A stretch of 64,000 bases of DNA. Origin: Odiellus spinosus. Lineage: Eukaryota > Arthropoda > Arachnida > Opiliones > Phalangiidae. A program made the translations under genes and the position numbers. Positions 4,641 to 64,000 of the stretch are shown here, piece after piece. Below the pieces are notes generated by a model. That model was not told where the DNA came from and made no database searches. It saw nothing but the letters and a program-made list of their open reading frames with translations. Location: assembly GCA_963920705.1 (NCBI GenBank), contig CAWUCO010000268.1, positions 558,001-622,000 on the forward strand. Direction: 5' to 3'. The number at the start of each line of letters is the position of its first letter. Position 1 is the first letter of the stretch.

Positions 4641-7600
4641 TTTTCCATGTTTTTCAACGGATTTTCCAAAACTCTTGATTTTCAGATAGACCAATATTTG
4701 CTCTTTCGAGTGGTCTTAATTTTGTCTAAATCGCTTAAAAATCAAAAGTTTTGTGTCCATTTGAATCCTATAATCTTGGATTTTTAAGCATTTTTGCTTT
4801 ATTTTAACCAATTTTATATTTGTCACAATTTTGCAATTTAGACAAAACCAAAGTCATTCGAAAGAGCAATTAATGGACAGTCTAAATACAAGAGTTTTCA
4901 AAAATCCGTTGAAAAACAAGAAAAATATGGCCAATTCAAGAAATCATACAATATCAAAATAGTCAAATTTCAGATTTTAAAAATTCGCTTTTTGATATTA
5001 GATGTTTTTTGAATTGTCCATATTTTCCATGTTTTTCAACGGATTTTCCAAAACTCTTGTTTTTTAGATAGACCAATATTTGCTCTTTCGAGTGGTCTTA
5101 ATTTTGTCTAAATCGCTTAAAAATCAAAAGTTTTGTGTCCATTTGAATCCAATAATCTTGGATTTTTAAGTGTTTTTGCTTAATTTTAACCAATTTTATA
5201 TTTGTCACAATTTTGCAATTTAGACAAAACCAAAGTCATTCGAAAGAGCAATTAATGGACAGTCTAAATAACAAGAGTTTTCAAAAATCCGTTGAAAAAC
5301 AAGAAAAATATGGCCAATTCAAGAAATCATACAATATCAAAATAGTCAAATTTCAGATTTTAAAAATTCGCTTTTTGATATTAGATGTTTTTTGAATTGG
5401 CCATATTTTCCATGTTTTTCAACGGATTTTCCAAAACTCCTGATTTTCAGATAGACCAATATTTGCTCTTTCGAGTGGTCTTAATTTTGTCTAAATCGCT
5501 TAAAAATCAAAAGTTTTGTGTCCATTTGAATCCTATAATCTTGGATTTTTAAGCATTTTTGCTATATTTTAACCAATTTTATATTTGTCACAATTTTGCA
5601 ATTTAGACAAAACCAAAGTCATTCGAAAGAGCAATTAATGGACAGTCTAAATACAAGAGTTTTCAAAAATCCGTTGAAAAACAAGAAAAATATGGCCAAT
5701 TCAAGAAATCATACAATATCAAAATAGTCAAATTTCAGATTTTAAAAATTCGCTTTTTGATATTAGATGTTTTTTGAATTGTCCATATTTTCCATGTTTT
5801 TCAACGGATTTTCCAAAACTCTTGTTTTTTAGATAGACCAATATTTGCTCTTTCGAGTGGTCTTAATTTTGTATAAATCGCTTAAAAATCAAAAGTTTTG
5901 TGTCCATTTGAATCCAATAATCTTGGATTTTTAAGTGTTTTTGCTTAATTTTAACCAATTTTATATTTGTCACAATTTTGCAATTTAGACAAAACCAAAG
6001 TCATTCGAAAGAGCAATTAATGGACAGTCTAAATACAAGAGTTTTCAAAAATCCGTTGAAAAACAAGAAAAATATGGCCAATTCAAGAAATCATACAATA
6101 TCAAAATAGTCAAATTTCAGATTTTAAAAATTCGCTTTTTGATATTAGATGTTTTTTGAATTGTCCATATTTTCCATGTTTTTCAACGGATTTTCCAAAA
6201 CTCTTGTTTTTTAGATAGACCAATATTTGCTCTTTCGAGTGGTCTTAATTTTGTCTAAATCGCTTAAAAATCAAAAGTTTTGTGTCCATTTGAATCCAAT
6301 AATCTTGGATTTTTAAGTGTTTTTGCTTAATTTTAACCAATTTTATATTTGTCACAATTTTGCAATTTAGACAAAACCAAAGTCATTCGAAAGAGCAATT
6401 AATGGACAGTCTAAATAATAAGAGTTTTCAAAAATCCGTTGAAAAACAAGAAAAATATGGCCAATTCAAGAAATCATAGAATATCAAAATAGTCAAATTT
6501 CAGATTTTCAAAATTCGCTTTTTGATATTAGATGCTTTTTGAATTGTCCATATTTTCCATGTTTTTCAACGGATTTTCCAAAACTCTTGATTTTCAGATA
6601 GACCAATATTTGCTCTTTCGAGTGGTCTTAATTTTGTCTAAATCGCTTAAAAATCAAAAGTTTTGTGTCCATTTGAATCCAATAATCTTGGATTTTTAAG
6701 TGTTTTTGCTTAATTTTAACCAATTTTATATTTGTCACAATTTTGCAATTTAGACAAAACCAAAGTCATTCGAAAGAGCAATTAATGGACAGTCTAAATA
6801 ATAAGAGTTTTCAAAAATCCGTTGAAAAACAAGAAAAATATGGCCAATTCAAGAAATCATAGAATATCAAAATAGTCAAATTTCAGATTTTAAAAATTCG
6901 CTTTTTGATATTAGATGTTTTTTGAATTGGCCATATTTTCCATGTTTTTCAACGGATTTTCCAAAACTCTTGATTTTCAGATAGACCAATATTTGCTCTT
7001 TCGAGTGGTCTTAATTTTGTCTAAATCGCTTAAAAATCAAAAGTTTTGTGTCCATTTGAATCCTATAATCTTGGATTTTTAAGCGTTTTTGCTTTATTTT
7101 AACCAATTTTATATTTGTCACAATTTTGCAATTTAGACAAAACCAAAGTCATTCGAAAGAGCAATTAATGGACAGTCTAAATACAAGAGTTTTCAAAAAT
7201 CCGTTGAAAAACAAGAAAAATATGGCCAATTCAAGAAATCATACAATATCAAAATAGTCAAATTTCAGATTTTAAAAATTCGCTTTTTGATATTAGATGT
7301 TTTTTGAATTGTCCATATTTTCCATGTTTTTCAACGGATTTTCCAAAACTCTTGTTTTTTAGATAGACCAATATTTGCTCTTTCGAGTGGTCTTAATTTT
7401 GTCTAAATCGCTTAAAAATCAAAAGTTTTGTGTCCATTTGAATCCAATAATCTTGGATTTTTAAGTGTTTTTGCTTAATTTTAACCAATTTTATATTTGT
7501 CACAATTTTGCAATTTAGACAAAACCAAAGTCATTCGAAAGAGCAATTAATGGACAGTCTAAATAATAAGAGTTTTCAAAAATCCGTTGAAAAACAAGAA

Positions 7601-50600: not shown

Positions 50601-50934
50601 AAAACTCTTGTTTTTTAGATAGACCAATATTTGCTCTTTCGAGTGGTCTTAATTTTGTCTAAATCGCTTAAAAATCAAAAGTTTTGTGTCCATTTGAATC
50701 CAATAATCTTGGATTTTTAAGTGTTTTTGCTTAATTTTAACCAATTTTATATTTGTCACAATTTTGCAATTTAGACAAAACCAAAGTCATTCGAAAGAGC
50801 AATTAATGGACAGTCTAAATAATAAGAGTTTTCAAAAATCCGTTGAAAAACAAGAAAAATATGGCCAATTCAAGAAACCATACAATATCAAAATAGTCAA
50901 ATTTCAGATTTTAAAAATTCGCTTTTTGATATTA

Positions 50935-50958
50935 AAAACAGGCCAGCTGGCCTGTTTT
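50935..50958. repeat. Perfect 24-bp palindrome at the island's left edge
   Basis: Seen: half-site AAAACAGGCCAG is followed directly by its exact reverse complement, with the centre at 50946/50947 (AG|CT). It begins on the first non-satellite base. A hairpin or a dimer-binding site would both fit. The same palindrome opens the second direct-repeat copy. Confidence 0.9.
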
Positions 50959-51047
50959 ATTTATAGGTGTCTCAAAATTTCATTAGAAAAGTCTATGGAG
51001 ATTTGTCTTATGAGGTGGAATTCTTTGTCATATTGATAACTGAGATA

Positions 51048-51080
51048 TTCTTCTTCTTCTTCTTCTTCTTCTTCTTCTTC
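51048..51080 (+). repeat. (TTC)11 microsatellite
   Basis: Seen: eleven uninterrupted TTC units inside copy A. The matching position of copy B has ten. The run is old enough to predate the A/B duplication or is a shared slippage hotspot. Confidence 0.95.
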
Positions 51081-51095
51081 TCCCGACCGCGAGTC

Positions 51096-51360
51096 CGTTT
51101 CATTGAGAGTTTGCATTCGAGAGAGAAAAATATGTTAGGATCATGGGGGTACTCTATATTTTTCTATGTTTTTCTGATGAATACTTCGACTGAGATAACA
51201 AAAGCTTTATAGATAACGTTGAAGCCCCGTGAAAGACGGCGTTTCATTCAGAGTTTGCATTCGAGAGAGAGAGAAATGTTGGGGTGTTCTATATTTTTTA
51301 TACTTTTCTGATGTTGAATACTACGACTGAGATAACAAAAACTTTAGATAACGTTAAAGC
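51096..51360. repeat. Internal two-fold tandem repeat, period 144
   Basis: Seen: CGTTTCATT followed by GAGTTTGCATTCGAGAGAG starts at 51096 and again at 51240 (one base of the first block differs). Each unit also contains CTCTATATTTTT, a TTTTCTGATG block, CGACTGAGATAACAAAA and AGATAACGTT. The equivalent pair in copy B starts at 52375 and 52517 (period 142), so this tandem duplication predates the A/B duplication. Confidence 0.8.
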
Positions 51361-51431
51361 GAAAGACGGAATAAGGAAACTATTTTTGTAGTCAAAGCGA
51401 AAGACGGAATAAGGAAACTATTTTTTTAGTC
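51356..51431. repeat. 38-bp tandem duplication, two copies, one mismatch
   Basis: Seen: units 51356-51393 and 51394-51431, each beginning AAAGCGAAAGACGG and containing AATAAGGAAACTA, differ at one base (TTTTTG against TTTTTT before TAGTC). Absent from copy B, so it is recent. Confidence 0.9.
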
Positions 51432-51646
51432 TCTATATCTAAGAAACGCACGGAATGTTTTGTTGATAATGTTTTATTAACAAAATTAGAATGATGTACC
51501 GTAGGGTAGATAAACTAGGGTATTTCACATTAGCCTCAATGATATATAGAGATGAGATTTCCAAAATGTCTTAGAAAAATGGACTCTGAGACAGATTTAA
51601 TTAATTCATTAGTTTATAAAAATCGGCGGTGGGACACCACTCCCCC

Positions 51647-51680
51647 AGTAGGCCACTCTTTGTTAGTGGGCCCGTTTTTT
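51647..51680 (+). repeat. GGCC hairpin followed by a T6 run (first copy)
   Basis: Seen: GGCCACT (51651-51657) can pair with AGTGGGCC (51665-51672) with one bulged G and a 7-base loop. It is followed by CCGTTTTTT. The AGTAGGCCA start and CCGTTTTTT end are both repeated in the hairpin at 53524-53556. The layout resembles an intrinsic terminator, but in a eukaryotic setting a structural or binding-site role is as likely. Confidence 0.5.
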
Positions 51681-51697
51681 ATCTTGCCTACTTTGGG

Positions 51698-51705
51698 TAT
51701 AAAAG
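51698..51705 (+). promoter_or_regulatory. Putative TATA box of the 64-codon gene
   Basis: Seen: TATAAAAG, in unique sequence, about 33 bases before a good initiator. It fits the RNA polymerase II core-promoter consensus and is placed correctly for the downstream open frame. Confidence 0.45.
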
Positions 51706-51728
51706 GCTAGGTATTCAGCGAAACAATA

Positions 51729-51734
51729 TCATTT
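51729..51734 (+). promoter_or_regulatory. Putative initiator (TCAKTY match)
   Basis: Seen: TCATTT matches the arthropod initiator consensus TCAKTY at all six positions. The presumed start base is A51731, 33 bases after the first T of the TATA box. This would give a 5' leader of about 109 bases before ATG51840. Confidence 0.4.
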
Positions 51735-51839
51735 GACTGCTAAATATCTCGACGTCAACTTGGAAGTATTGGTTAGTCATTACTTTGAACTCCAAGGTGG
51801 AAGGATAGCGTCTCATCTTCATTAACTGACTGGCGTGCC

Positions 51840-52034
51840 ATGAAACACTCGTCCATCACATTGTCAGCAGTATCTACTTATCATCTGCATAAGTCATTCT
51901 ATGAAGAAACCTGCCTGCTAGAAAACCGCGCTATGCGTCAAGACTTTGAGGAAGTGGGAACCCTGAGCAAGAACTTCTACATCGTCAGCCTGATCATTGC
52001 ATACATGGAAATATTTATTTTAACCATCGCGTGA
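51840..52034 (+). CDS. Unrecognised 64-residue protein with C-terminal hydrophobic segment
   Basis: I do not recognise a family. Seen: ATG with G at -3 (GCCATGA), 64 codons, TGA at 52032. Residues 1-45 are polar, with a charged middle (YEETCLLENRAMRQDFEE, about 21-38). Residues 46-64 are hydrophobic (FYIVSLIIAYMEIFILTIA, with one Glu at 57), long enough for one membrane span ending at the C-terminus, as in tail-anchored proteins. Codons 35-56 end in G or C in 17 of 22 cases, unlike the AT-rich surroundings. A TATA box and initiator lie upstream, and AATAAA follows the stop by 14 bases. Inferred: a compact transcribed unit or a captured exon fragment. It sits between direct-repeat copies A and B and is not seen after B. 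It could also be chance; no homologue can be checked here. Confidence 0.4.
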   Translation: MKHSSITLSAVSTYHLHKSFYEETCLLENRAMRQDFEEVGTLSKNFYIVSLIIAYMEIFILTIA

Positions 52035-52048
52035 ATTACGCTTGACTA

Positions 52049-52054
52049 AATAAA
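52049..52054 (+). terminator. Putative polyadenylation signal of the 64-codon gene
   Basis: Seen: AATAAA 14 bases after the TGA, followed within about 20 bases by a T/GT-rich stretch (TTTGTTATAGAGGTGTTTTT). This is the usual layout of a metazoan cleavage and polyadenylation site. Confidence 0.45.
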
Positions 52055-52210
52055 TCATATTTGTTATAGAGGTGTTTTTATTTCAATGTCACACATACTT
52101 GTTATTTTAAAACCTTTAACTAAGGGATACTGGTCTCTTGTTTACATTTTTAGGTTTTCGGCAATATGGGTATCTAATTTTAGGAATTCCTGAAAAACTG
52201 TTACCCACCT
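52055..52210. other. Unassigned spacer between the 64-codon gene and copy B
   Basis: Seen: about 150 bases of AT-rich unique sequence ending in CCTATATTA before the second palindrome. Nothing recognisable. Confidence 0.6.
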
Positions 52211-52216
52211 ATATTA

Positions 52217-52240
52217 AAAACAGGCCAGCTGGCCTGTTTT
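52217..52240. repeat. Second copy of the 24-bp palindrome
   Basis: Seen: identical to the copy at the island's left edge, with the centre at 52228/52229. It is also preceded by ATATTA (52211-52216), the same six bases the satellite provides at the first copy. Inferred: the shared preceding bases could be a target preference, part of the repeated unit, or chance. Confidence 0.9.
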
Positions 52241-52329
52241 ATTTATAAGTGTCTCAAAATTTCATTAGAAAAGTCTATGGAGATTTGTCTTATGAGGTGG
52301 AATCTTTTTTGTCAATGATAACTGAGGTT

Positions 52330-52359
52330 TTCTTCTTCTTCTTCTTCTTCTTCTTCTTC
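52330..52359 (+). repeat. (TTC)10 microsatellite
   Basis: Seen: ten uninterrupted TTC units inside copy B, at the place equivalent to the (TTC)11 run of copy A, followed in both by CCGACCGCGAGTCCG. Confidence 0.95.
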
Positions 52360-53079
52360 GTCCGACCGCGAGTCCGTTTCATTGAGTGTTTGCATTCGAG
52401 AGAGAAAAATTCGTTAGGCTCGTGGGGGTACTCTATATTTTTCTATACGTTTCGGATTAATACTAAGACTGAGTTATCAAAAGCTGTAGATAAGGTTGAA
52501 ACACCGTGAAAGACGGCGTTTCATTGGGAGTTTGCATTAGAAAGAGAGAAATGTGTTAGATTTACAAGGGTGTTCTATTATATTTTTATTATACTTTTAT
52601 TATGTTGAATACTAAGACTGAATAACAGTAGCTTTGATTACGTTGGATAGGAAGACGGATAAAAAGATAACGTTGGTGTATGCAGTTGAATAAAAAACTT
52701 GTGTCTAATTAAATATAAATTATAAAGCAGAACGCGAGAGATACAAACGATATATGTTTTGGTTTAAAAGATATAGGACGATGCCTAGAATTCTACGTAT
52801 TGAGTCAAATGCAAAACAGTGTTTTTAACGTTTATAGTGCGTATTGAATTTTTTTTATCAATGATTATAAGCCACAGGGTACATAAACTTGGGTATTATA
52901 CAATAGCCCAAATGGTATATAACGGTGAGATTTTGAAATGTCTTAGAAAATGGACTCTGAGACAGACGTACAATAAATTGATTTAGTTATAAAAGTTGGC
53001 GGGAAATTTAAATGATGCTGCAGAATTTAAAGGAGTCTAGAAAGGATACGGATATAAGAACAAAATTGGACACACGCGC

Positions 53080-53238
53080 GATAGGACACAATATCGATGG
53101 GATATAATCTCGATGGGACGCAATCTCGACAGAACATAATGTCGATACAACACAATCTTGATAGACCGTAATCTTCATGTACATAATCTCAAGTGGAATC
53201 TTTATCGATAGTTCACAACCTCGAAAGGACATTTTGTT
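53080..53238. repeat. Degenerate 16-bp minisatellite, about ten units
   Basis: Seen: consecutive 16-base units close to GATGGGACATAATCTC. Starts are 53080, 53096, 53112, 53128, 53144, 53160, 53176 (15 bases), 53191, 53207 and 53223. AAT at unit positions 10-12 and a final CTC/CTT/TC are best kept, and the last units are weak. On the reverse strand this creates a 74-codon open frame (53008-53232), which is a by-product of the repeat. Confidence 0.85.
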
Positions 53239-53260
53239 TCCTTGCCCTTCTTGTAATATT

Positions 53261-53370
53261 TTAGGTAAGGTTACGTTAGTTAATCACTCGAACTACGTCA
53301 TCCCTCCAACTAGTTAAACACTTGCTCTAACCCATTCCTCTTATTATATTATAGGTAAGGTTACGTTAGT
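53261..53370 (+). repeat. Spaced direct repeat of a TTAGG-like 20-mer (period 90)
   Basis: Seen: TAGGTAAGGTTACGTTAGT occurs at 53262-53280 and 53352-53370. Both are preceded by similar CC-TTCTT/CCTCTT-plus-TATT tracts, so the repeat unit is probably about 90 bases and diverged. Read in fives, the first copy is TTAGG TAAGG TTACG TTAGT, one mismatch at most per unit from TTAGG, the common arthropod telomere repeat. Each copy also contains AG|GTAAGG, a good splice-donor match. Either resemblance may be chance. Confidence 0.6.
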
Positions 53371-53434
53371 AGAGTGCAACAGTCTCAGTCTGATTTAGTT
53401 GCAGTCGACGCGAAGTCAGCCCCTTTAGAGTGTT

Positions 53435-53478
53435 CGAACTTTCGGTACTATCATGTGTTCGACATAACGAACTTTCGG
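53435..53478. repeat. Short direct repeat CGAACTTTCGG, period 33
   Basis: Seen: CGAACTTTCGG at 53435-53445 and 53468-53478, with GTGTTCGA before the first and again between the copies. No function suggested. Confidence 0.6.
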
Positions 53479-53523
53479 ACTCGTCGTCCAATTCTTACAA
53501 TGGGATGTAAATACGTTTTTCAG

Positions 53524-53556
53524 TTGGCCTATCGCCAGTAGGCCAAATCCGTTTTT
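53524..53556 (+). repeat. GGCC hairpin followed by a T6 run (second copy)
   Basis: Seen: TTGGCCTA (53524-53531) pairs perfectly with TAGGCCAA (53539-53546) around a 7-base loop. ATCCGTTTTTT follows. It shares AGTAGGCCA and CCGTTTTTT with the hairpin at 51647-51680, although the stems differ. The second hairpin lies about 520 bases after the end of copy B, the first about 12 bases after copy A. Confidence 0.6.
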
Positions 53557-53910
53557 TAAGGGAAGTCGACGTAGTTTTTCGAGAGATAAAAGTCATTTGC
53601 GCCTATGGATAGAACACATTCTCTCTCTGTCATTCATGCGTTCAACATCGTGTAAAAAAAAAAGTTGACGTCTCTAGCCTGCTGCAGAGGTGGAAGTTCC
53701 GTGGTGACGCCTAGAATGTCTTAGCCTTCAAGGATTAGGATAGGCCAAGTAGAGGACAAGTAGTGGATAGATGCCTGGGGCCATCATCCTGTACATCTCT
53801 TGGACAGCAGAGTAAAGGAAGACTTACGTTTCTTTAGGAACAGTGCGGAGGACTTGGCATAGTTTTTTGCAAATATGTTCTTTAACGCGATGTTGTTTTT
53901 ACGACTTCGT
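53557..53910. other. Unassigned unique sequence with an A10 run
   Basis: Seen: mixed-composition unique sequence with an A10 run at 53654-53663 and a more GC-rich part around 53670-53860 that has no long frame in either direction and no domain I recognise. It may be a relic of a gene or transposon; nothing decides this. Confidence 0.5.
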
Positions 53911-53967
53911 TTGCTTTTTTTTTGCAGGGCTCTTTGAATTTATGAGAATTATACTTGTAATAATAAA
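53911..53967 (+). promoter_or_regulatory. Splice-acceptor-like tract followed by AATAAA
   Basis: Seen: a T-rich tract (TTGC then nine T) ends in GCAG|GG, with the AG at 53926-53927. AATAAA follows at 53962-53967, then a T/GT-rich stretch. Together these look like a short terminal exon of about 50-60 bases. The GTAAGG sites at 53265 and 53355 are possible donors. All reading frames after the acceptor stop quickly (TTATGA in one), so it would be 3' untranslated. This is signal matching only. Confidence 0.3.
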
Positions 53968-55581
53968 GTTTAATGTTTATTCTGGTCTCGATCGTCTCGT
54001 TAATTCTCGGGTAGATATTTTAGTATCTTAGTGGATGTTCATGGTAATCACTTTTCGTTATCTTTAAGTTAGCAGATTAAAACAACGCTAGTAAGGTCGC
54101 GTCAGGCTAGTATATTTTATCATTCGAATTAGCCAATATCCCTTTAGCTAGTAATCCTTTGGTATCACCCTTCTCTCTTATAATTGACGAGTTCGGAATT
54201 GAAGCGAATCTTCCAGAGCCATGGCGCGATTGAGGTATAACATCGTTATGCCGCTTTCGTCGTTCTTATTCTAAACTAAGCGTAGTGGATGAATACATGG
54301 ATGGAAACAAAGAAAGAGTCATCATATTATATGTATCGGCAAATTCGGACTTTATTAATATTTTCTTATATAACCTTTAAAATCTTTGACTCCTACCCTT
54401 TAATTCGTAAATACTTGTATTTGTAAACGGCAGAGACTCCGCCCCCCCCCCCAGAACAATTACAGTCGTAGGGTGTTTTTTCTTTTAGGTCTTCCGATAC
54501 GCGTATCTAGCTAGCGCGAGGTCGGAGGTTAGAGTTGTAATGGTTCTTCTTGCACATGGACTTCTTTTTTTTTATAAATCGGTCCCATGTGTACTCAATT
54601 TTAAGAAAACTTTAAATTCCTTTTAGTTGCCATGCCCGCGTATGCCGCGTCATGGTACCAATTATATATTTTCCTACTTACTGGTATCCTGAGGTTGGAC
54701 TGGAGACTTAAAAGCGAGAGGTCATAATTTTTAAATTGAGTTTAAATATACGGAGTAAGAAAAAGGCTTGATCGCCATGTACAAAATAAAATCTAACCGG
54801 GCAATCAGATGATTCGAAATCACGCGATGACGAGACGTCAGCGACCAGTATTCTGTATACATTTCAATCTTTAATTGTGCGCGTCAGTCCACCATTATTT
54901 GTGCGCGTCGTGTAACGCGTCCTCACAGGAAAACGAGTGAGTTCAAAGCTATTTTAAAAGGGTACCAATTAATTAGGTCAAAACTATTAATCTAATAGCC
55001 CATGAGGTGCACCATGGCAGACCAGTATTTATTAAGTGTTGTTAATAATTTTCATTAACCGGCAAATAAACTGAATAGTTTCATTTTAAATCTAAGTGAA
55101 AAATGAAAATTAAACGGTATAAACCATCATAATGAAAACAACGGCTTAAGCGATGTTAATATTCATCTAAATCGAAAGCACTTCTGAATTAAACTGTGTG
55201 AAATGAAATTTAAGAACTATAGTTTTATGCTGAGAGTATTGACGTGTTCGTTCTGCGGGAGCTCGAGGGAATATTTTTGAATATGGCAAAAACAAGAACT
55301 TAATCAATTTACTTTTAAAAAGATCGAATAACGTGCTGCGATCGAGATTAAAAAAGATGTCGCGTGCACCATAGGATATTTAATCTTAAACCACAGTTAT
55401 AGTGCCCCATAATTTAGAACAACAATAACCGATTATAAAGTTTGTACAATATAAAATAATCATATATATTAAATCATTTCAATTTAAACTTGTAAATTTG
55501 CAATTTTAATTCCTACCACTAAATTAAAAAAAAATGGGTTAATTGATTTACAAGTGTTTAATTTTTCCAAAAGCAAACACA
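53968..55581. other. Unassigned unique AT-rich sequence
   Basis: Seen: about 1.6 kb without long open frames, repeats or RNA genes that I can identify. It holds a C11 run at 54442-54452 and a twice-repeated GTGCGCGTC (near 54877 and 54901). After about 55000 it is markedly AT-rich. I checked for tRNA B-box and TATA-plus-frame arrangements and saw none. Confidence 0.6.
54442..54452 (+). repeat. C11 homopolymer
   Basis: Seen: eleven consecutive C in otherwise AT-rich unique sequence (CTCCG before, AGAACA after). Worth noting as a spot where base calling may be off by one or more. Confidence 0.85.
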
Positions 55582-55586
55582 AATTA

Positions 55587-55876
55587 TACAAAAACGTTGT
55601 TTTGCTTCGCACTTCAAAAAAGTGCATTTATAGGTAAGAATTTCAAACCCGTGAAGGGACAGAAATTATAAATTCACAGTGAAAGAAATATGAAAGTCAC
55701 AGTCTAAGAAATCATAAAGCTATAATTATTATACAAAAACGTTGTTTTGCTTCGTACTTCAAAAATGTGCATTTAAAGGTTAGAATTTCAAACCCGTGAA
55801 GGGACAGAAATTATAAATTCACAGTGAAAGAAATATGAAAGTCACAGTCTAAGAAATCATAAAGCTATAATTATAA
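55587..55876 (+). repeat. Left-arm tandem pair, 2 x 145 bp
   Basis: Seen: units 55587-55731 and 55732-55876 match apart from about four substitutions (TTCGCAC/TTCGTAC, AAAAGTGC/AAATGTGC, TTATAGG/TTAAAGG, GGTAAG/GGTTAG) and a different final few bases. Shared core includes CCCGTGAAGGGACAG and GTCACAGTCTAAG. Confidence 0.9.
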
Positions 55877-56216
55877 TAATTAATATGAATAAAAAATTTA
55901 CAAAAAAATGACGTATAAATTCGGCCTATCGAAACTTTTAATTATGCAGAAATCATTCTGTTGTAGAATTCACTCTTGGTAAGGGTAACTAAAAGCCAAC
56001 TATGCGTGGAAAGGTAGAATAGCATAATACCAAATAGTTCCTGCCCGCGTTATTAAAATGTTTAGTTGTAAGGATGGATGGTTGCAGTTTTCAGTTAGTA
56101 AAAGGAAACATTCGCCTCTTTATAAAGTTTCTAATCATTAAATCTACATAAGTAAAAGTTTCGATAGGCCGAATTTATACGTCATTTTTTTGTAAATTTT
56201 TTATTCATGTTAATTA

Positions 56217-56506
56217 TTATAATTATAGCTTTATGATTTCTTAGACTGTGACTTTCATATTTCTTTCACTGTGAATTTATAATTTCTGTCCCTTCACGGG
56301 TTTGAAATTCTAACCTTTAAATGCACATTTTTGAAGTACGAAGCAAAACAACGTTTTTGTATAATAATTATAGCTTTATGATTTCTTAGACTGTGACTTT
56401 CATATTTCTTTCACTGTGAATTTATAATTTCTGTCCCTTCACGGGTTTGAAATTCTTACCTATAAATGCACTTTTTTGAAGTGCGAAGCAAAACAACGTT
56501 TTTGTA
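56217..56506 (-). repeat. Right-arm tandem pair, 2 x 145 bp (inverted)
   Basis: Seen: mirror of the left-arm pair. The outer unit (about 56362-56506) matches the left outer unit and the inner unit (about 56217-56361) matches the left inner one, with the four inter-unit differences kept in both arms. Confidence 0.9.
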
Positions 56507-56796
56507 TAATTAGATGTTTTTTGAATTGGCTATATTTTCCATGTGTTTCAACGGATTTTCCAAAACTCTTGTTTTTTAGATAGACCAATATTTGCTCTTT
56601 CGAGTGGTCTTAATTTTGTCTAAATCGCTTAAAAATCAAAAGTTTTGTGTCCATTTGAATCCAATAATCTTGGATTTTTAAGCGTTTTTGCTTAATTTTA
56701 ACCAATTTTATATTTGTCACGTTTTGGCAATTTAGACAAAACCAAAGTCATTCGAAAGAGCAATTAATGGACAGTCTAAATAATAAGAGTTTTCAA

Positions 56797-59700
56797 AAAC
56801 CCGTTGAAAAACAAGAAAAATATGGCCAATTCAAGAAATCATACAATATCAAAATAGTCAAATTTCAGATTTTAAAAATTCGCTTTTTGATATTAGATGT
56901 TTTTTGAATTGGCTATATTTTCCATGTTTTTCAACGGATTTTCCAAAACTCTTGTTTTTTAGATAGACAAATATTTGCTCTTTCGAGTGGTCTTAATTTT
57001 GTCTAAATCGCTTAAAAATCAAAAGTTTTGTGTCCATTTGAATCCAATAATCTTGAATTTTTAAGCGTTTTTGCTTAATTTTAACCAATTTTATATTTGT
57101 CACGTTTTGGCAATTTAGACAAAACCAAAGTCATTCGAAAGAGCAATTAATGGACAGTCTAAATAATAAGAGTTTTCAAAAACCCGTTGAAAAACAAGAA
57201 AAATATGGCCAATTCAAGAAATCATACAATATCAAAATAGTCAAATTTCAGATTTTAAAAATTCGCTTTTTGATATTAGATGTTTTTTGAATTGTCCATA
57301 TTTTCCATGTTTTTCAACGGATTTTCCAAAACTCTTGTTTTTAGATAGACCAATATTTGCTCTTTCGAGTGGTCTTAATTTTGTCTAAATCGCTTAAAAA
57401 TCAAAAGTTTTGTATCCATTTGAATCCAATAATCTTGGATTTTTAAGCGTTTTTGCTTAATTTTAACCAATTTTATATTTGTCACGTCTTGGCAATTTAG
57501 GCAAAACTTAAGTCATTCGAAAGAGCAATCAATGGACAGTCTAAATAATAAGAGTTTTCAAAAATCCGTTGAAAAACAAGAAAAATATGGCCAATTCAAG
57601 AAACCATACAATATCAAAATAGTCAAATTTCAGATTTTAAAAATTCGCTTTTTGATATTAGATGTTTTGAATTGGCTATATTTTCCATGTTTTTCAACGG
57701 ATTTTCCAAAACTCTTGTTTTTTAGATAGACCAATATTTGCTCTTTCGAGTAGTCTTAATTTTGTCTAAATCGCTTAAAAATCAAAAGTTTTGTGTCCAT
57801 TTGAATCCAATAATCTTGGATTTTTAAGCATTTTTGCTTAATTTTAACCAATTTTATATTTGTCACGTTTTGGCAATTTAGACAAAACCAAAGTCATTCG
57901 AAAGAGCAATTAATGGACAGTCTAAATAATAAGAGTTTTCAAAAATCCGTTGAAAAACAAGAAAAATATGGCCAATTCAATAAACCATACAATATCAAAA
58001 TAGTCAAATTTCAGATTTTAAAAATTCGCTTTTTGATATTAGATGTTTTTTGAATTGGCTATATTTTCCATGTTTTTTAACGGATTTTCCAAAACTCTTG
58101 TTTTTTAGATAGACCAATATTTGCTCTTTCGAGTGGTCTTAATTTTGTCTAAATCGCTTAAAAATCAAAAGTTTTGTGTCCATTTGAATCCAATAATCTT
58201 GGATTTTTAAGTGTTTTTGCTTAATTTTAACCAATTTTATATTTGTCACAATTTTGCAATTTAGACAAAACCAAAGTCATTCGAAAGAGCAATTAATGGA
58301 CAGTCTAAATAATAAGAGTTTTCAAAAATCCGTTGAAAAACAAGAAAAATATGGCCAATTCAAGAAACCATACAATATCAAAATAGTCAAATTTCAGATT
58401 TTAAAAATTCGCTTTTTGATATTAGATGTTTTTTGAATTGGCTATATTTTCCATGTTTTTCAACGGATTTTCCAAAACTCTTGTTTTTTAGATAGACCAA
58501 TATTTGCTCTTTCGAGTGGTCTTAATTTTGTCTAAATCGCTTAAAAATCAAAAGTTTTGTGTCCATTTGAATCCAATAATCTTGGATTTTTAAGCGTTTT
58601 TAGTTAATTTTAACCAATTTTATATTTGTCACGTTTTGGCAATTTAGACAAAACCAAAGTCATTCGAAAGAGCAATTAATGGACAGTCTAAATAATAAGA
58701 GTTTTCAAAAACCCGTTGAAAAACAAGAAAAATATGGCCAATTCAAGAAATCATACAATATCAAAATAGTCAAATTTCAGATTTTAAAAATTCGCTTTTT
58801 GATATTAGATGTTTTTTGAATTGGCTATATTTTCCATGTTTTTCAACGGATTTTCCAAAACTCTTGTTTTTTAGATAGACAAATATTTGCTCTTTCGAGT
58901 GGTCTTAATTTTGTCTAAATCGCTTAAAAATCAAAAGTTTTGTGTCCATTTGAATCCAATAATCTTGGATTTTTAAGCGTTTTTGCTTAATTTTAACCAA
59001 TTTTATATTTGTCACGTTTTGGCAATTTAGACAAAACCAAAGTCATTCGAAAGAGCAATTAATGGACAGTCTAAATAATAAGAGTTTTCAAAAACCCGTT
59101 GAAAAACAAGAAAAATATGGCCAATTCAAGAAATCATACAATATCAAAATAGTCAAATTTCAGATTTTAAAAATTCGCTTTTTGATATTAGATGTTTTTT
59201 GAATTGTCCATATTTTCCATGTTTTTCAACGGATTTTCCAAAACTCTTGTTTTTAGATAGACCAATATTTGCTCTTTCGAGTGGTCTTAATTTTGTCTAA
59301 ATCGCTTAAAAATCAAAAGTTTTGTATCCATTTGAATCCAATAATCTTGGATTTTTAAGCGTTTTTGCTTAATTTTAACCAATTTTATATTTGTCACGTC
59401 TTGGCAATTTAGGCGAAACTTAAGTCATTCGAAAGAGCAATCAATGGACAGTCTAAATAATAAGAGTTTTCAAAAATCCGTTGAAAAACAAGAAAAATAT
59501 GGCCAATTCAAGAAAACATACAATATCAAAATAGTCAAATTTCAGATTTTAAAAATTCGCTTTTTGATATTAGATGTTTTTGAATTGGCTATATTTTCCA
59601 TGTTTTTCAACGGATTTTCCAAAACTCTTGTTTTTTAGATAGACCAATATTTGCTCTTTCGAGTAGTCTTAATTTTGTCTAAATCGCTTAAAAATCAAAA

Positions 59701-61310
59701 GTTTTGTGTCCATTTGAATCCAATAATCTTGGATTTTTAAGCGTTTTTGCTTAATTTTAACCAATTTTATATTTGTCACAATTTTGCAATTTAGACAAAA
59801 CCAAAGTCATTCGAAAGAGCAATTAATGGACAGTCTAAATAATAAGAGTTTTCAAAAATCCGTTGAAAAACAAGAAAAATATGGCCAATTCAAGAAACCA
59901 TACAATATCAAAATAGTCAAATTTCAGATTTTAAAAATTCGCTTTTTGATATTAGATGTTTTTTGAATTGGCTATATTTTCCATGTTTTTCAACGGATTT
60001 TCCAAAACTCTTGTTTTTTAGATAGACCAATATTTGCTCTTTCGAGTGGTCTTAATTTTGTCTAAATCGCTTAAAAATCAAAAGTTTTGTGTCCATTTGA
60101 ATCCAATAATCTTGGATTTTTAAGCGTTTTTGCTTAATTTTAACCAATTTTATATTTGTCACGTTTTGGCAATTTAGACAAAACCAAAGTCATTCGAAAG
60201 AGCAATTAATGGACAGTCTAAATAATAAGAGTTTTCAAAAACCCGTTGAAAAACAAGAAAAATATGGCCAATTCAAGAAATCATACAATATCAAAATAGT
60301 CAAATTTCAGATTTTAAAAATTCGCTTTTTGATATTAGATGTTTTTTGAATTGGCTATATTTTCCATGTTTTTCAACGGATTTTCCAAAACTCTTGTTTT
60401 TTAGATAGACAAATATTTGCTCTTTCGAGTGGTCTTAATTTTGTCTAAATCGCTTAAAAATCAAAAGTTTTGTGTCCATTTGAATCCAATAATCTTGGAT
60501 TTTTAAGCGTTTTTGCTTAATTTTAACCAATTTTATATTTGTCACGTTTTGGCAATTTAGACAAAACCAAAGTCATTCGAAAGAGCAATTAATGGACAGT
60601 CTAAATAATAAGAGTTTTCAAAAACCCGTTGAAAAACAAGAAAAATATGGCCAATTCAAGAAATCATACAATATCAAAATAGTCAAATTTCAGATTTTAA
60701 AAATTCGCTTTTTGATATTAGATGTTTTTTGAATTGTCCATATTTTCCATGTTTTTCAACGGATTTTCCAAAACTCTTGTTTTTAGATAGACCAATATTT
60801 GCTCTTTCGAGTGGTCTTAATTTTGTCTAAATCGCTTAAAAATCAAAAGTTTTGTATCCATTTGAATCCAATAATCTTGGATTTTTAAGCGTTTTTGCTT
60901 AATTTTAACCAATTTTATATTTGTCACGTCTTGGCAATTTAGGCAAAACTTAAGTCATTCGAAAGAGCAATCAATGGACAGTCTAAATAATAAGAGTTTT
61001 CAAAAATCCGTTGAAAAACAAGAAAAATATGGCCAATTCAAGAAACCATACAATATCAAAATAGTCAAATTTCAGATTTTAAAAATTCCCTTTTTGATAT
61101 TAGATGTTTTTGAATTGGCTATATTTTCCATGTTTTTCAACGGATTTTCCAAAACTCTTGTTTTTTAGATAGACCAATATTTGCTCTTTCGAGTAGTCTT
61201 AATTTTGTCTAAATCGCTTAAAAATCAAAAGTTTTGTGTCCATTTGAATCCAATAATCTTGGATTTTTAAGCGTTTTTGCTTAATTTTAACCAATTTTAT
61301 ATTTGTCACG
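56797..61310. repeat. Higher-order repeat of the right array (5-mer then 4-mer)
   Basis: Seen: the variant series AAACCCGTTG, AGACAAATATTTGC, AAACCCGTTG, T-short CTTGTTTTTAGATAG, GTATCC, CACGTCTTGG, GAGCAATCAATGG occurs three times. Copies start near 56797, 58709 and 60239. The first spacing is 1912 (five monomers) and the second 1530 (four). The extra monomer in the first copy is the one with AATTCAATAAACC and TTTTTTAACGG (about 57850-58210), which also occurs at 50385-50740 just left of the island. Confidence 0.75.
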
Positions 61311-61315
61311 TTTTG

Positions 61316-61697
61316 GCAATTTAGACAAAACCAAAGTCATTCGAAAGAGCAATTAATGGACAGTCTAAATAATAAGAGTTTTCAAAAATCCGTTGAAAAA
61401 CAAGAAAAATATGGCCAATTCAAGAAACCATACAATATCAAAATAGTCAAATTTCAGATTTTAAAAATTCGCTTTTTGATATTAGATGTTTTTGAATTGG
61501 CTATATTTTCCATGTTTTTCAACGGATTTTCCAAAACTCTTGTTTTTTAGATAGACCAATATTTGCTCTTTCGAGTGGTCTTAATTATGTCTAAATCGCT
61601 TAAAAATCAAAAGTTTTGTGTCCATTTGAATCCAATAATCTTGGATTTTTAAGCGTTTTTGCTTAATTTTAACCAATTTTATATTTGTCACGTTTTG
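61316..61697. repeat. Representative satellite monomer with full-length internal dyad
   Basis: Seen: taken as a reference unit. Bases 61316-61423 and the reverse complement of 61492-61599 align over 108 positions without gaps, with 88 matches by hand count. Key shared blocks are AATCCGTTGAAAAACA, ACTCGAAAGAGCAA or ATTCGAAAGAGCAA, and AGCCAATTCAA or GGCCAATTCAA. The dyad continues inward with a gap to AATATCAAAA (61434-61443) against TTTTGATATT (61474-61483), leaving about 30 unpaired bases. A second perfect 12-bp inverted repeat, CGCTTAAAAATC (61597-61608) and GATTTTTAAGCG (61644-61655), has a 35-base spacer. Inferred: the monomer arose by inverted duplication of a roughly 140-bp ancestor plus a tail. 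Long inverted subunits are known in some beetle satellites. Confidence 0.9.
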
Positions 61698-64000
61698 GCA
61701 ATTTAGACAAAACCAAAGTCATTCGAAAGAGCAATTAATGGACAGTCTAAATAATAAGAGTTTTCAAAAATCCGTTGAAAAACAAGAAAAATATGGCCAA
61801 TTCAAGAAACCATACAATATCAAAATAGTCAAATTTCAGATTTTAAAAATTCGCTTTTTGATATTAGATGTTTTTGAATTTTCTATATTTTCCATGTTTT
61901 TCAACGGATTTTCCAAAACTCTTGTTTTTTAAATAGACCAATATTTGCTCTTTCGAGTGGTCTTAATTATGTCTAAATCGCTTAAAAATCAAAAGTTTTG
62001 TGTCCATTTGAATCCAATAATCTTGGATTTTTAAGCGTTTTTGCTTAATTTTAACCAATTTTATATTTGTCACGTTTTGGCAATTTAGACAAAACCAAAG
62101 TCATTCGAAAGAGCAATTAATGGACAGTCTAAATAATAAGAGTTTTCAAAAATCCGTTGAAAAACAAGAAAAATATGGCCAATTCAAGAAACCATACAAT
62201 ATCAAAATAGTCAAATTTCAGATTTTAAAATTTCGCTTTTTGATATTAGATGTTTTTGAATTGGCTATATTTTCCATGTTTTTCAACGGATTTTCCAAAA
62301 CTCTTGTTTTTTAGATAGACCAATATTTGCTCTTTCGAGTGGTCTTAATTTTGTCTAAATCGCTTAAAAATCAAAGGTTTTGTGTCCATTTGAATCCAAT
62401 AATCTTGGATTTTAAAGCGTTTTTGCTTAATTTTAACCAATTTTATATTTGTCACGTTTTGGCAATTTAGGCAAAACTTAAGTCATTCGAAAGAGCAATT
62501 AATGGACAGTCTAAATAATAAGAGTTTTCAAAAATCCGTTGAAAAACAAGAAAAATATGGCCAATTCAAGAAACCATACAATATCAAAATAGTCAAATTT
62601 CAGATTTTAAAAATTCGCTTTTTGATATTAGATGTTTTTGAATTGGCTATATTTTCCATGTTTTTCAACGGATTTTCCAAAACTCTTGTTTTTTAGATAG
62701 ACCAATATTTGCTCTTTCGAGTGGTCTTAATTTTGTCTAAATCGCTTAAAAATCAAAAGTTTTGTGTCCATTTGAATCCAATAATCTTGGATTTTTAAGC
62801 GTTTTTGCTTAATTTTAACCAATTTTATATTTGTCACGTTTTGGCAATTTAGACAAAACCAAAGTCATTCGAAAGAGCAATTAATGGACAGTCTAAATAA
62901 TAAGAGTTTTCAAAAATCCGTTGAAAAACAAGAAAAATATGGCCAATTCAAGAAATCATACAATATCAAAATAGTCAAATTTCAGATTTTAAAAATTCGC
63001 TTTTTGATATTAGATGTTTTTTGAATTGTCCATATTTTCCATGTTTTTCAACGGATTTTCCAAAACTCTTGCTTTTAGATAGACCAATATTTGCTCTTTC
63101 GAGTGTTCTTAAATTTGTCTAAATCGCTTAAAAATCAAAAGTTTTGTGTCCATTTGAATCCAATAATCTTGGATTTTTAGCGTTTTTGCTTAATTTTAAC
63201 CAATTTTACACTTGTCACGTTTTGGCAATTTAGACAAAACCAAAGTCATTCGAAAGAGCAATTAATGGACAGTCTAAATAATAAGAGTTTTCAAAAATCC
63301 GTTGAAAAACAAGAAAAATATGGCCAATTCAAGAAACCATACAATATCAAAATAGTCAAATTTCAGATATTAAAAATTCGCTTTTTGATATTAGATGATT
63401 TTGAATTGGCTATATTTTCCATGTTTTTCAACGGATTTTCCAAAACTCTTGTTTTTTAGATAGACCAATATTTGCTCTTTCGAGTGGTCTTAATTATGTC
63501 TAAATCGCTTAAAAATCAAAAGTTTTGTGTCCATTTGAATCCAATAATCTTGGATTTTTAAGCGTTTTTGCTTAATTTTAACCAATTTTATATTTGTCAC
63601 GTTTTGGCAATTTAGACAAAACCAAAGTCATTCGAAAGAGCAATTAATGGACAGTCTAAATAATAAGAGTTTTCAAAAATCCGTTGAAAAACAAGAAAAA
63701 TATGGCCAATTCAAGAAACCATACAATATCAAAATAGTCAAATTTCAGATTTTAAAAATTCGCTTTTTGATATTAGATGTTTTTGAATTGGCTATATTTT
63801 CGATGTTTTTCAACGGATTTTCCAAAACTCTTGTTTTTTAGTTAGACCAATATTTGCTCTTTCGAGTGGTCTTAATTATGTCTAAATCGCTAAAAAATCA
63901 AAAGTTTTGTGTCCATTTGAATCCAATTATCTTGGATTTTTAAGCGTTTTTGCTTAATTTTAACCAATTTTATATTTGTCACGTTTTGGCAATTTAGACA

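What the first reader, a model, noticed from the sequence alone, without database searches (positions are those of the whole stretch)
50929..56516. A 5.57-kb unit inserted cleanly into a higher-order satellite, register preserved, with ATTA at both edges
The satellite breaks after GATATTA and resumes at ATTAGATG, the same base of the same monomer. The variant order left of the break (AATTCAATAAACC, TTTTTTAACGG, AAGTGTTTTTGC, CACAATTTTGC) and right of it (AAACCCGTTG, AGACAAATATTTGC, T-short CTTGTTTTTAG, CACGTCTTGG) is the order seen without interruption at 57.85-59.5 kb. The offset between left tail and right array (7490) less one five-mer (1912) is 5578, which equals the island plus four bases. 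So no satellite was lost or gained apart from ATTA. This argues for a real insertion rather than a mis-join, and gives an internal empty-site reference near 58418.
Basis: partly seen in the sequence, partly recalled or inferred. Interest (0 to 1): 0.8.

Follow-up and report, generated by a model that had tools for sequence, protein, structure and literature searches.

The report
Jumping element aimed at satellite DNA
The 5.6-kb island in the satellite array is one recent copy of a mobile element, most likely of the rolling-circle (Helitron) kind with unusual ends, that slips between an A and a T of the host DNA, and copies of its family are found again and again at one exact base of the satellite repeat, in one direction.

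Summary
The insertion is real. The element is window 50932-56509 (5578 bp), between A50931 and T56510; the satellite is uninterrupted at the paralogous site 58421|58422. In the 21 copies read (window plus 20 fetched) both ends are fixed and the host is A|T; 9 of 21 have an empty site in held sequence, gapless at the join. 'ATTA at both edges' is not a target duplication: the left TTA is element sequence in all 21. Copies differ by 0.69% on average and two at different places are identical: very recent movement. The left end is a 24-bp palindrome (298 exact in the genome, control 0), the right end a foldback. Five of 36 Helitron Rep hits compared have this right terminus downstream on the same strand, none on the wrong side. 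Best reading: a non-autonomous Helitron-superfamily element with non-canonical ends (no TC, no CTRR, no subTIR found). Unexpected: 28 left ends and 40 right ends lie at one satellite base, GACTA|TTTTG; 26 pair up, with spans of 2.9-20 kb; the left end in the opposite orientation there: 0. Five of these were read, falling in four lineages.

The parts
50932..56509 (+). Whole element, 5578 bp, non-autonomous; long form with two left termini and one right terminus
   Evidence: Same ends in 21 of 21 copies read. The + strand is inferred from the strand of Rep relative to the right terminus in larger relatives.
50935..50958 (.). 24-bp perfect palindrome at the left (inferred 5') terminus, 3 bases from the end
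   Evidence: 298 exact in the genome, reversed control 0; fold z -3.7; terminal 60 bases 59 of 60 identical to the internal terminus.
50932..52213 (+). Unit A: 1282 bp between the outer and the internal left terminus; absent from short copies
   Evidence: Short copy L040 begins at the equivalent of 52214; A against A' 84.7% over 452 columns.
51840..52034 (+). 64-aa open frame; not evidently maintained
   Evidence: Same peptide in 9 of 21 copies, missense in 6, stops in 2, not found by the script in 4; no Pfam match.
52214..52240 (+). Internal second left terminus (TTA + the same palindrome), start of short copies
52214..55581 (+). Unit A' and body, no long reading frame
   Evidence: Longest stop-to-stop frame wholly inside the element is 91 aa.
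55582..55950 (+). Foldback, left arm (two 145-bp tandem units)
   Evidence: 369-nt arm, 99% complementary to the right arm; tandem units.
56143..56511 (-). Foldback, right arm; the element ends at 56509, the last two arm bases are host
50931..50931 (.). Host A on the left of the insertion; the host T on the right is 56510
   Evidence: A on the left and T on the right in 21 of 21 copies.
58421..58422 (.). Paralogous empty site (GATA|TTAG) in the neighbouring duplicated block
   Evidence: 300-bp gapless match 58272-58571.
56510..64000 (.). 383-bp satellite, right of the island (also 1-50931 on the left)

Best explanation
The island is a non-autonomous rolling-circle transposon of the Helitron superfamily with non-canonical ends. 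A Rep/helicase made by larger relatives would nick at the left end (TTA plus a 24-bp palindrome), carry one strand through to the right end (foldback ...GTATA or GTATAA), and join it between an A and a T of the target without a target duplication. The long form has two left ends and one right end because one member inserted into or beside another and the pair then moved as one. In the satellite there is a strong, oriented hot spot at GACTA|TTTTG; the window copy sits at another satellite A|T. Shown: fixed ends, A|T, empty sites, recent copies, nested and tandem forms, hot spot. Inferred: the enzyme, the 5'-to-3' polarity, the rolling-circle steps and the reason for the hot spot.
For: Both ends fixed and host A|T in 21 of 21 copies; 44 of 45 left flanks shown in a wider list have A. 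Empty sites gapless at the join for 9 of 21. Self-nested copies at A|T in L021 and L011, tandem units in L039. Copies 0-0.97% apart. Terminal palindrome, 298 exact against 0 in the control, and the terminal 60 bases far better conserved than the interior. Five of 36 Rep hits compared have the family's right terminus downstream on the same strand, at 6187, 8575, 8673, 8803 and 15930 bp, none on the wrong strand or upstream. C259: both family ends at the hot spot 20,023 bp apart, enclosing a Rep domain in an open frame of 2983 aa. Several 5' termini with one 3' terminus are described for FoHelis (PMC5148889, sections 10 and 16 read).
Against: Ends are not canonical: no 5' TC, no CTRR 3', no palindrome about 11 nt from the inferred 3' end; the hairpin nearest the right end is weak (14 of 200 shuffles fold as well). 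The Rep link rests on coordinates; no Rep-bearing relative was read end to end, 31 of 36 Rep hits compared show no such terminus, and the Rep loci that were read (L033-L038, and L041 upstream of another Rep) show no convincing similarity to the island. An AT duplication cannot be told from none. The foldback also occurs without the body, which could mean an independent TIR element.
Confidence: 0.77

Rival explanations
1. A cut-and-paste DNA transposon: the foldback is a terminal-inverted-repeat (MITE-like) element whose transposase also accepts the left end, inserting at AT with a 2-bp AT duplication.
For: 369-bp inverted arms. 19 of 49 clusters of right-end motifs on C1 and the listed part of C2 have no exact body junction within 1.2 kb, including 5 facing pairs 580-893 bp apart, 4 of them at least 39 kb from an exact palindrome. 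An AT duplication fits all 21 copies. Both ends share TTA and AAAAAC (seen directly).
Against: The two ends of the island are not inverted repeats of each other. The right end wobbles by one base between nearly identical copies. No superfamily with an AT duplication is known to me (recalled). The Rep association on one strand would be unexplained.
Confidence: 0.14
2. About the hot spot alone: the copies at GACTA|TTTTG come from a few insertions multiplied with the satellite array, not from repeated targeting.
For: Several spans recur almost exactly, for example four near 7.2 kb on C6 and five near 3.3 kb. L020 and L023 are 0.04% apart at the same site.
Against: L010, L016 and L028 each group with copies at other sites, support 1.0, 0.97 and 0.999; hot-spot status needs four changes on the tree, as many as shuffled labels give (3-5). 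Spans range from 2.9 to 20 kb.
Confidence: 0.25
3. Assembly mis-join or chance capture of unrelated DNA in a satellite break.
Against: The same two ends recur in 20 other copies read, many outside satellite.
Confidence: 0.02

Closest known systems
Canonical Helitron (Helitron1), e.g. Helraiser (PMC4778049, passages read; definition also in PMC4067079, passages read)
   Same: Target A|T with no target duplication; palindrome at one terminus; Rep-helicase relatives suspected; several termini and altered ends.
   Different: No 5' TC or 3' CTRR; the palindrome lies 3 bases from the other (inferred 5') end rather than about 11 nt from the 3' end; foldback right end.
FoHeli elements of Fusarium oxysporum (PMC5148889; outline with abstract, sections 6, 10, 16 read)
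   Same: Non-canonical termini, hairpin at the 5' end, copies with several 5' termini and one 3' terminus, nested and composite copies; sometimes very recent.
   Different: FoHelis have asymmetric terminal inverted repeats and other terminal motifs; none was found here. No satellite hot spot in the sections read.
Helentron / HINE / DINE-1 (PMC4067079 and PMC7492417, passages read)
   Same: Non-coding members outnumber coding ones, no target duplication, number of terminal bases varies between copies.
   Different: They insert in TT and carry 11-15 bp subTIRs; here the target is A|T and no subTIR was found.
Foldback / MITE-like TIR transposons (recalled)
   Same: Long inverted arms in the right module, which also occurs alone.
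   Different: The whole island has no inverted terminal repeats and no unambiguous duplication.

Membership tests
Helitron superfamily | Insertion between A and T without target duplication | tested here: met
   21 of 21 A|T, 9 of 21 with gapless empty sites. A 1-bp A or 2-bp AT duplication would give the same letters.
Helitron superfamily | Mobilised by a Rep (HUH) - helicase protein | tested here: inconclusive
   5 of 36 Rep hits compared have the right terminus downstream on the same strand, 0 control; no such relative was read end to end.
Canonical Helitron (Helitron1) | 5' TC and 3' CTRR ends | tested here: not met
   Ends are TTAAAAACAGG... and ...GTATA or GTATAA in 21 of 21; reversed: TTATAC or TATAC ... 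GTTTTTAA.
Canonical Helitron (Helitron1) | 16-20 nt palindrome about 11 nt from the 3' end | tested here: not met
   The 24-bp palindrome is 3 bases from the left end, which is the inferred 5' end; if polarity were reversed it would be at the 3' end but still too close.
Helentron / HINE | Insertion in TT | tested here: not met
   A|T in 21 of 21.
Helentron / HINE | 11-15 bp subterminal inverted repeats | tested here: not met
   Best inverted match between the right 40 and the left 110 bases is 6 bp; 381 and 372 of 500 shuffles score as well.
FoHeli-like (Helitron2 variant) | Asymmetric terminal inverted repeats | tested here: not met
   same test.
TIR DNA transposon | Inverted repeats at the two ends of the element | tested here: not met
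   Both foldback arms lie at the right side; no inverted match to the left end.
TIR DNA transposon | Target duplication around solo foldbacks | not tested
   Their flanks could not be fetched.

The most novel reading that the evidence does not exclude
A Helitron relative with near site-specific, strand-oriented integration: its Rep recognises one position of a self-complementary satellite monomer, an unpaired A at the foot of the predicted 383-nt hairpin (CTA|TTTTGATATT), as nucleases of single-stranded DNA might. It would use megabases of satellite as a safe harbour while still moving elsewhere at other A|T sites.
Probability: 0.4. Interest if true: 0.78.

Novelty: new variant of a known kind. 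Interest (0 to 1): 0.56.

Why it matters
Canonical Helitrons are described as inserting at A|T (PMC4067079, passages) and, as I recall, with little further choice. Here 26 pairs of family ends sit at one base of a satellite monomer in one orientation, with spans from 2.9 to 20 kb. If these are repeated insertions, target choice by a eukaryotic HUH transposase becomes testable, and there is a concrete route by which satellite arrays gain and tolerate mobile DNA. Because the satellite target is present tens of thousands of times (estimate), satellite copies bring their own empty-site control.

Tried and rejected
Rejected or dropped: an ATTA or TTA duplication (TTA is element sequence at all 21 sites). 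A satellite that is higher-order throughout. My first orientation, with the left palindrome as 3' terminator (note): the strand of Rep relative to the right terminus reversed it (note); this is an inference. A maintained small gene at 51840-52034. tRNA or known RNA: none; one match under its family's cut-off, at the left edge. The two end sequences have 0 exact matches in viral contigs. First attempts to link the element to Rep: no match longer than 20 bp in L033-L038, and only weak ones in L041 (best E 0.049, 30 bp at 80%). Rep hits against exact palindromes on C1-C5: 1 of 33 lies within 60 kb (12.7 kb), and that palindrome is on the other strand; the later test against right ends gave the link. 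Sequence strings in papers: 0 papers hold any of six. Searches for Helitron hot spots or site preference in satellites: nothing in the titles and abstract beginnings listed describes one; one search found 0 papers, and the library lacks most subscription journals.
Full report
WHAT IS THERE. The window is G000:C261:558001-622000 of an unnamed 443-Mb assembly. Outside the island it is a 383-bp satellite: with the island taken out, 152 monomers, 110 of them 383 bp and 38 of them 382 bp, about 97.3-97.7% alike at every lag from 1 to 20 (join two bases short). The island is 50932-56509, 5578 bp. The higher-order order is local: monomers 132-135 match 137-140 at 99.2-100%, with a further shift by four beyond, and a few other blocks of the window show modest peaks.

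IT IS A MOBILE ELEMENT. A search with 50929-53900, the left half of the island, scored 40 of 1463 candidates. It gave 29 places, the window included, that run from query base 1-3 to the end at 97-100% identity, and 12 long matches that begin at 1280-1286. With the window that makes 21 copies, chosen by similarity to the window copy and so not a random sample of the family. All 21 have the same two ends. For L021 the script printed the left flank of an outer partial copy; the inner copy also follows an A. Mean pairwise difference is 0.69%, maximum 0.97%; L025 and L026 are identical with different flanks; the window copy, L009 and L010 differ by 0.05-0.09% and sit at three different satellite positions. 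Movement is therefore very recent. Exact counts in the genome: left 24-bp palindrome 298, body/foldback junction 27-mer 270, right-end 35-mer 823; the reversed controls are 0. The palindrome occurs twice in long copies, so these are not counts of elements.

HOW IT SITS IN THE HOST. In 21 of 21 copies the host base on the left is A and on the right T. For 9 of 21 (8 in satellite plus L018) held sequence contains an uninterrupted version of the joined flanks, gapless at the join; for L018 the match is 84% over 225 columns with gaps elsewhere. The other 12 had none in held sequence and were not searched in the genome. Of 266 left ends matched by a wider pattern, letters were shown for 45: A in 44; without the internal junction, 37 of 37 distinct flanks have A. 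The right end is GTATAA in 15 of 21 and GTATA in 6, and nearly identical copies differ in this (L025 and L026, L020 and L023, L027 and L028), so the wobble seems to arise in transposition. No duplication, a 1-bp A duplication in the first class, or a 2-bp AT duplication give the same letters. ATTA is not a duplication: TTA is element sequence at every site read, for example GACTA|TTTTG, where the host has no TTA.

ANATOMY. The left terminus is TTA and a perfect 24-bp palindrome. A second, complete left terminus lies at 52214. Unit A (1282 bp) matches the following unit A' at 84.7% over 452 columns but at 59 of 60 bases at the end itself, which points to selection on the terminus. The short copy L040 begins at the equivalent of 52214. 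Copies nested in other copies at A|T are seen in L021 (gtcata|ttgata) and L011 (ctgagata|ttaaaa), and L039 holds tandem 1.9-kb units joined at gccaa|TTAAAAACAGG. This fits self-insertion followed by joint movement or unequal exchange, as proposed for Fusarium FoHelis with several 5' termini (PMC5148889, sections 10 and 16). The right part is a foldback: two 369-nt arms, 99% complementary, 192 nt apart, each with two 145-bp tandem units. It is not exclusive to this element: on C1 and the listed part of C2, 19 of 49 clusters of right-end motifs have no exact body junction within 1.2 kb, including 5 facing pairs 580-893 bp apart, of which 4 lie 39 kb or more from any exact palindrome listed. Mutated junctions would also look like this. 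Their flanks could not be read.

CODING. The longest stop-to-stop frame wholly inside is 91 aa. Ten frames gave one Pfam line, below its cut-off. The 64-aa frame at 51840-52034 gives the same peptide in 9 of 21 copies, has missense changes in 6, stops in 2, and was not found by the script in 4. I take the element as non-autonomous.

WHO MOVES IT. The genome has 150 scored matches to the Helitron Rep domain PF14214. I compared 36 of them (all 33 on C1-C5, two on C259, one on C261) with right termini known: 5 have this family's right terminus downstream on the same strand within 20 kb, at 6187, 8575, 8673, 8803 and 15930 bp; 31 have none; none has one on the wrong strand or upstream. For C259 and C261 only minus-strand hot-spot right ends were entered in the script; by eye no plus-strand one lies within 20 kb. 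The three near 8.7 kb are the only members of the 108.6-bit Rep group among the 36. On C259 the two family ends, both at the hot spot, are 20,023 bp apart and enclose a Rep in an open frame of 2983 aa; the two ends could still belong to different insertions, and I could not read the stretch. A read Rep locus of similar profile, L037, has Helitron_like_N (E 1.6e-30), and a neighbouring frame matches PIF1 helicase weakly (E 3.1e-6, over its cut-off). Whether L037 has these ends is unknown; its 3.5 kb show no similarity to the island. The strand of Rep makes the left palindrome the 5' end and the foldback the 3' end. That is an inference, and it reversed my first assumption.

THE HOT SPOT. 28 left ends lie at TTTGACTA|TTAAAAACAGG and 40 right ends match GTAT(N)ATTTTGATAT, 25 with and 15 without one extra base. 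26 of the 28 left ends have a right end on the same strand within 25 kb, with spans of 2.9, 3.3, 4.0, 4.3, 4.5-4.6, 5.4, 5.6, 5.7, 7.2, 9.4 and 20 kb; 2 left and 14 right ends have no exact partner. The left end in the opposite orientation at the same dinucleotide: 0; the right end in that orientation was not searched. In the window 150 exact TTTGACTATTTTG cores are present. The consensus monomer has 40 AT dinucleotides, so 80 site-orientations. Of the 8 satellite copies read, 5 are at this site. L010, L016 and L028 each group with copies at other sites (support 1.0, 0.97, 0.999), while L020 and L023 may be one event; hot-spot status needs four changes on the tree, and shuffled labels need 3-5. 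If choice were uniform, four or more of seven events at one site has P about 7e-5. The satellite is about 4.7% of the assembly if the window's rate (91 exact 32-mers in 152 monomers) holds for the 32,418 in the genome (my arithmetic); 8 of 21 copies lie in it, P about 3e-6. Both P values treat the sample as unbiased, which it is not. A monomer folds as one long imperfect hairpin (-86 kcal/mol, z -12.1, 0 of 100 shuffles as good), and the hot-spot A is an unpaired base near the foot of the stem: a structural cause is possible and untested. The window's own insertion is at another position, GATA|TTAG, and on the other satellite strand.

VERDICT. A real and recent insertion of a non-autonomous, Helitron-like element whose ends fit neither the canonical Helitron nor the Helentron definition as tested, with an unexpected oriented hot spot in a satellite. 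The host species was not identified.

Noticed in passing
window 58020-58402 (one satellite monomer): The 383-bp monomer is one long imperfect dyad: as a single strand it folds to -86 kcal/mol, z -12.1 against 100 shuffles.
   Followed up: partly
G000 C1:9177421, 11451843, 11828958, 15629301; C2:21073714: Facing pairs of the foldback ends without the exact body junction nearby: the right module may move by itself.
   Followed up: partly
G000 C2:20703572-20707511: Two outward right-end motifs 3.9 kb apart with no body junction listed: perhaps a longer element with the same inverted ends.
   Followed up: no
G000 C1:16515094-16523992 and 16637105-16649792: Palindrome-to-junction distances of 8.9 and 12.7 kb with the same left flank: longer family members of unknown content.
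   Followed up: no
G000 C137:2851961-2901455: Four Helitron Rep matches on one strand in about 50 kb, with a short form of this element's left part at 2862734-2864415 among them.
   Followed up: partly
window 53068-53174 and 53249-53370: A degenerate 16-bp minisatellite (GGACACAATCTCGATA) and two copies of a 32-bp motif with TAGGTAAGGTTACGTTAG inside the body.
   Followed up: no
window 51048-51081 and 52330-52359: Perfect TTC microsatellites at the equivalent place of units A and A'.
   Followed up: no
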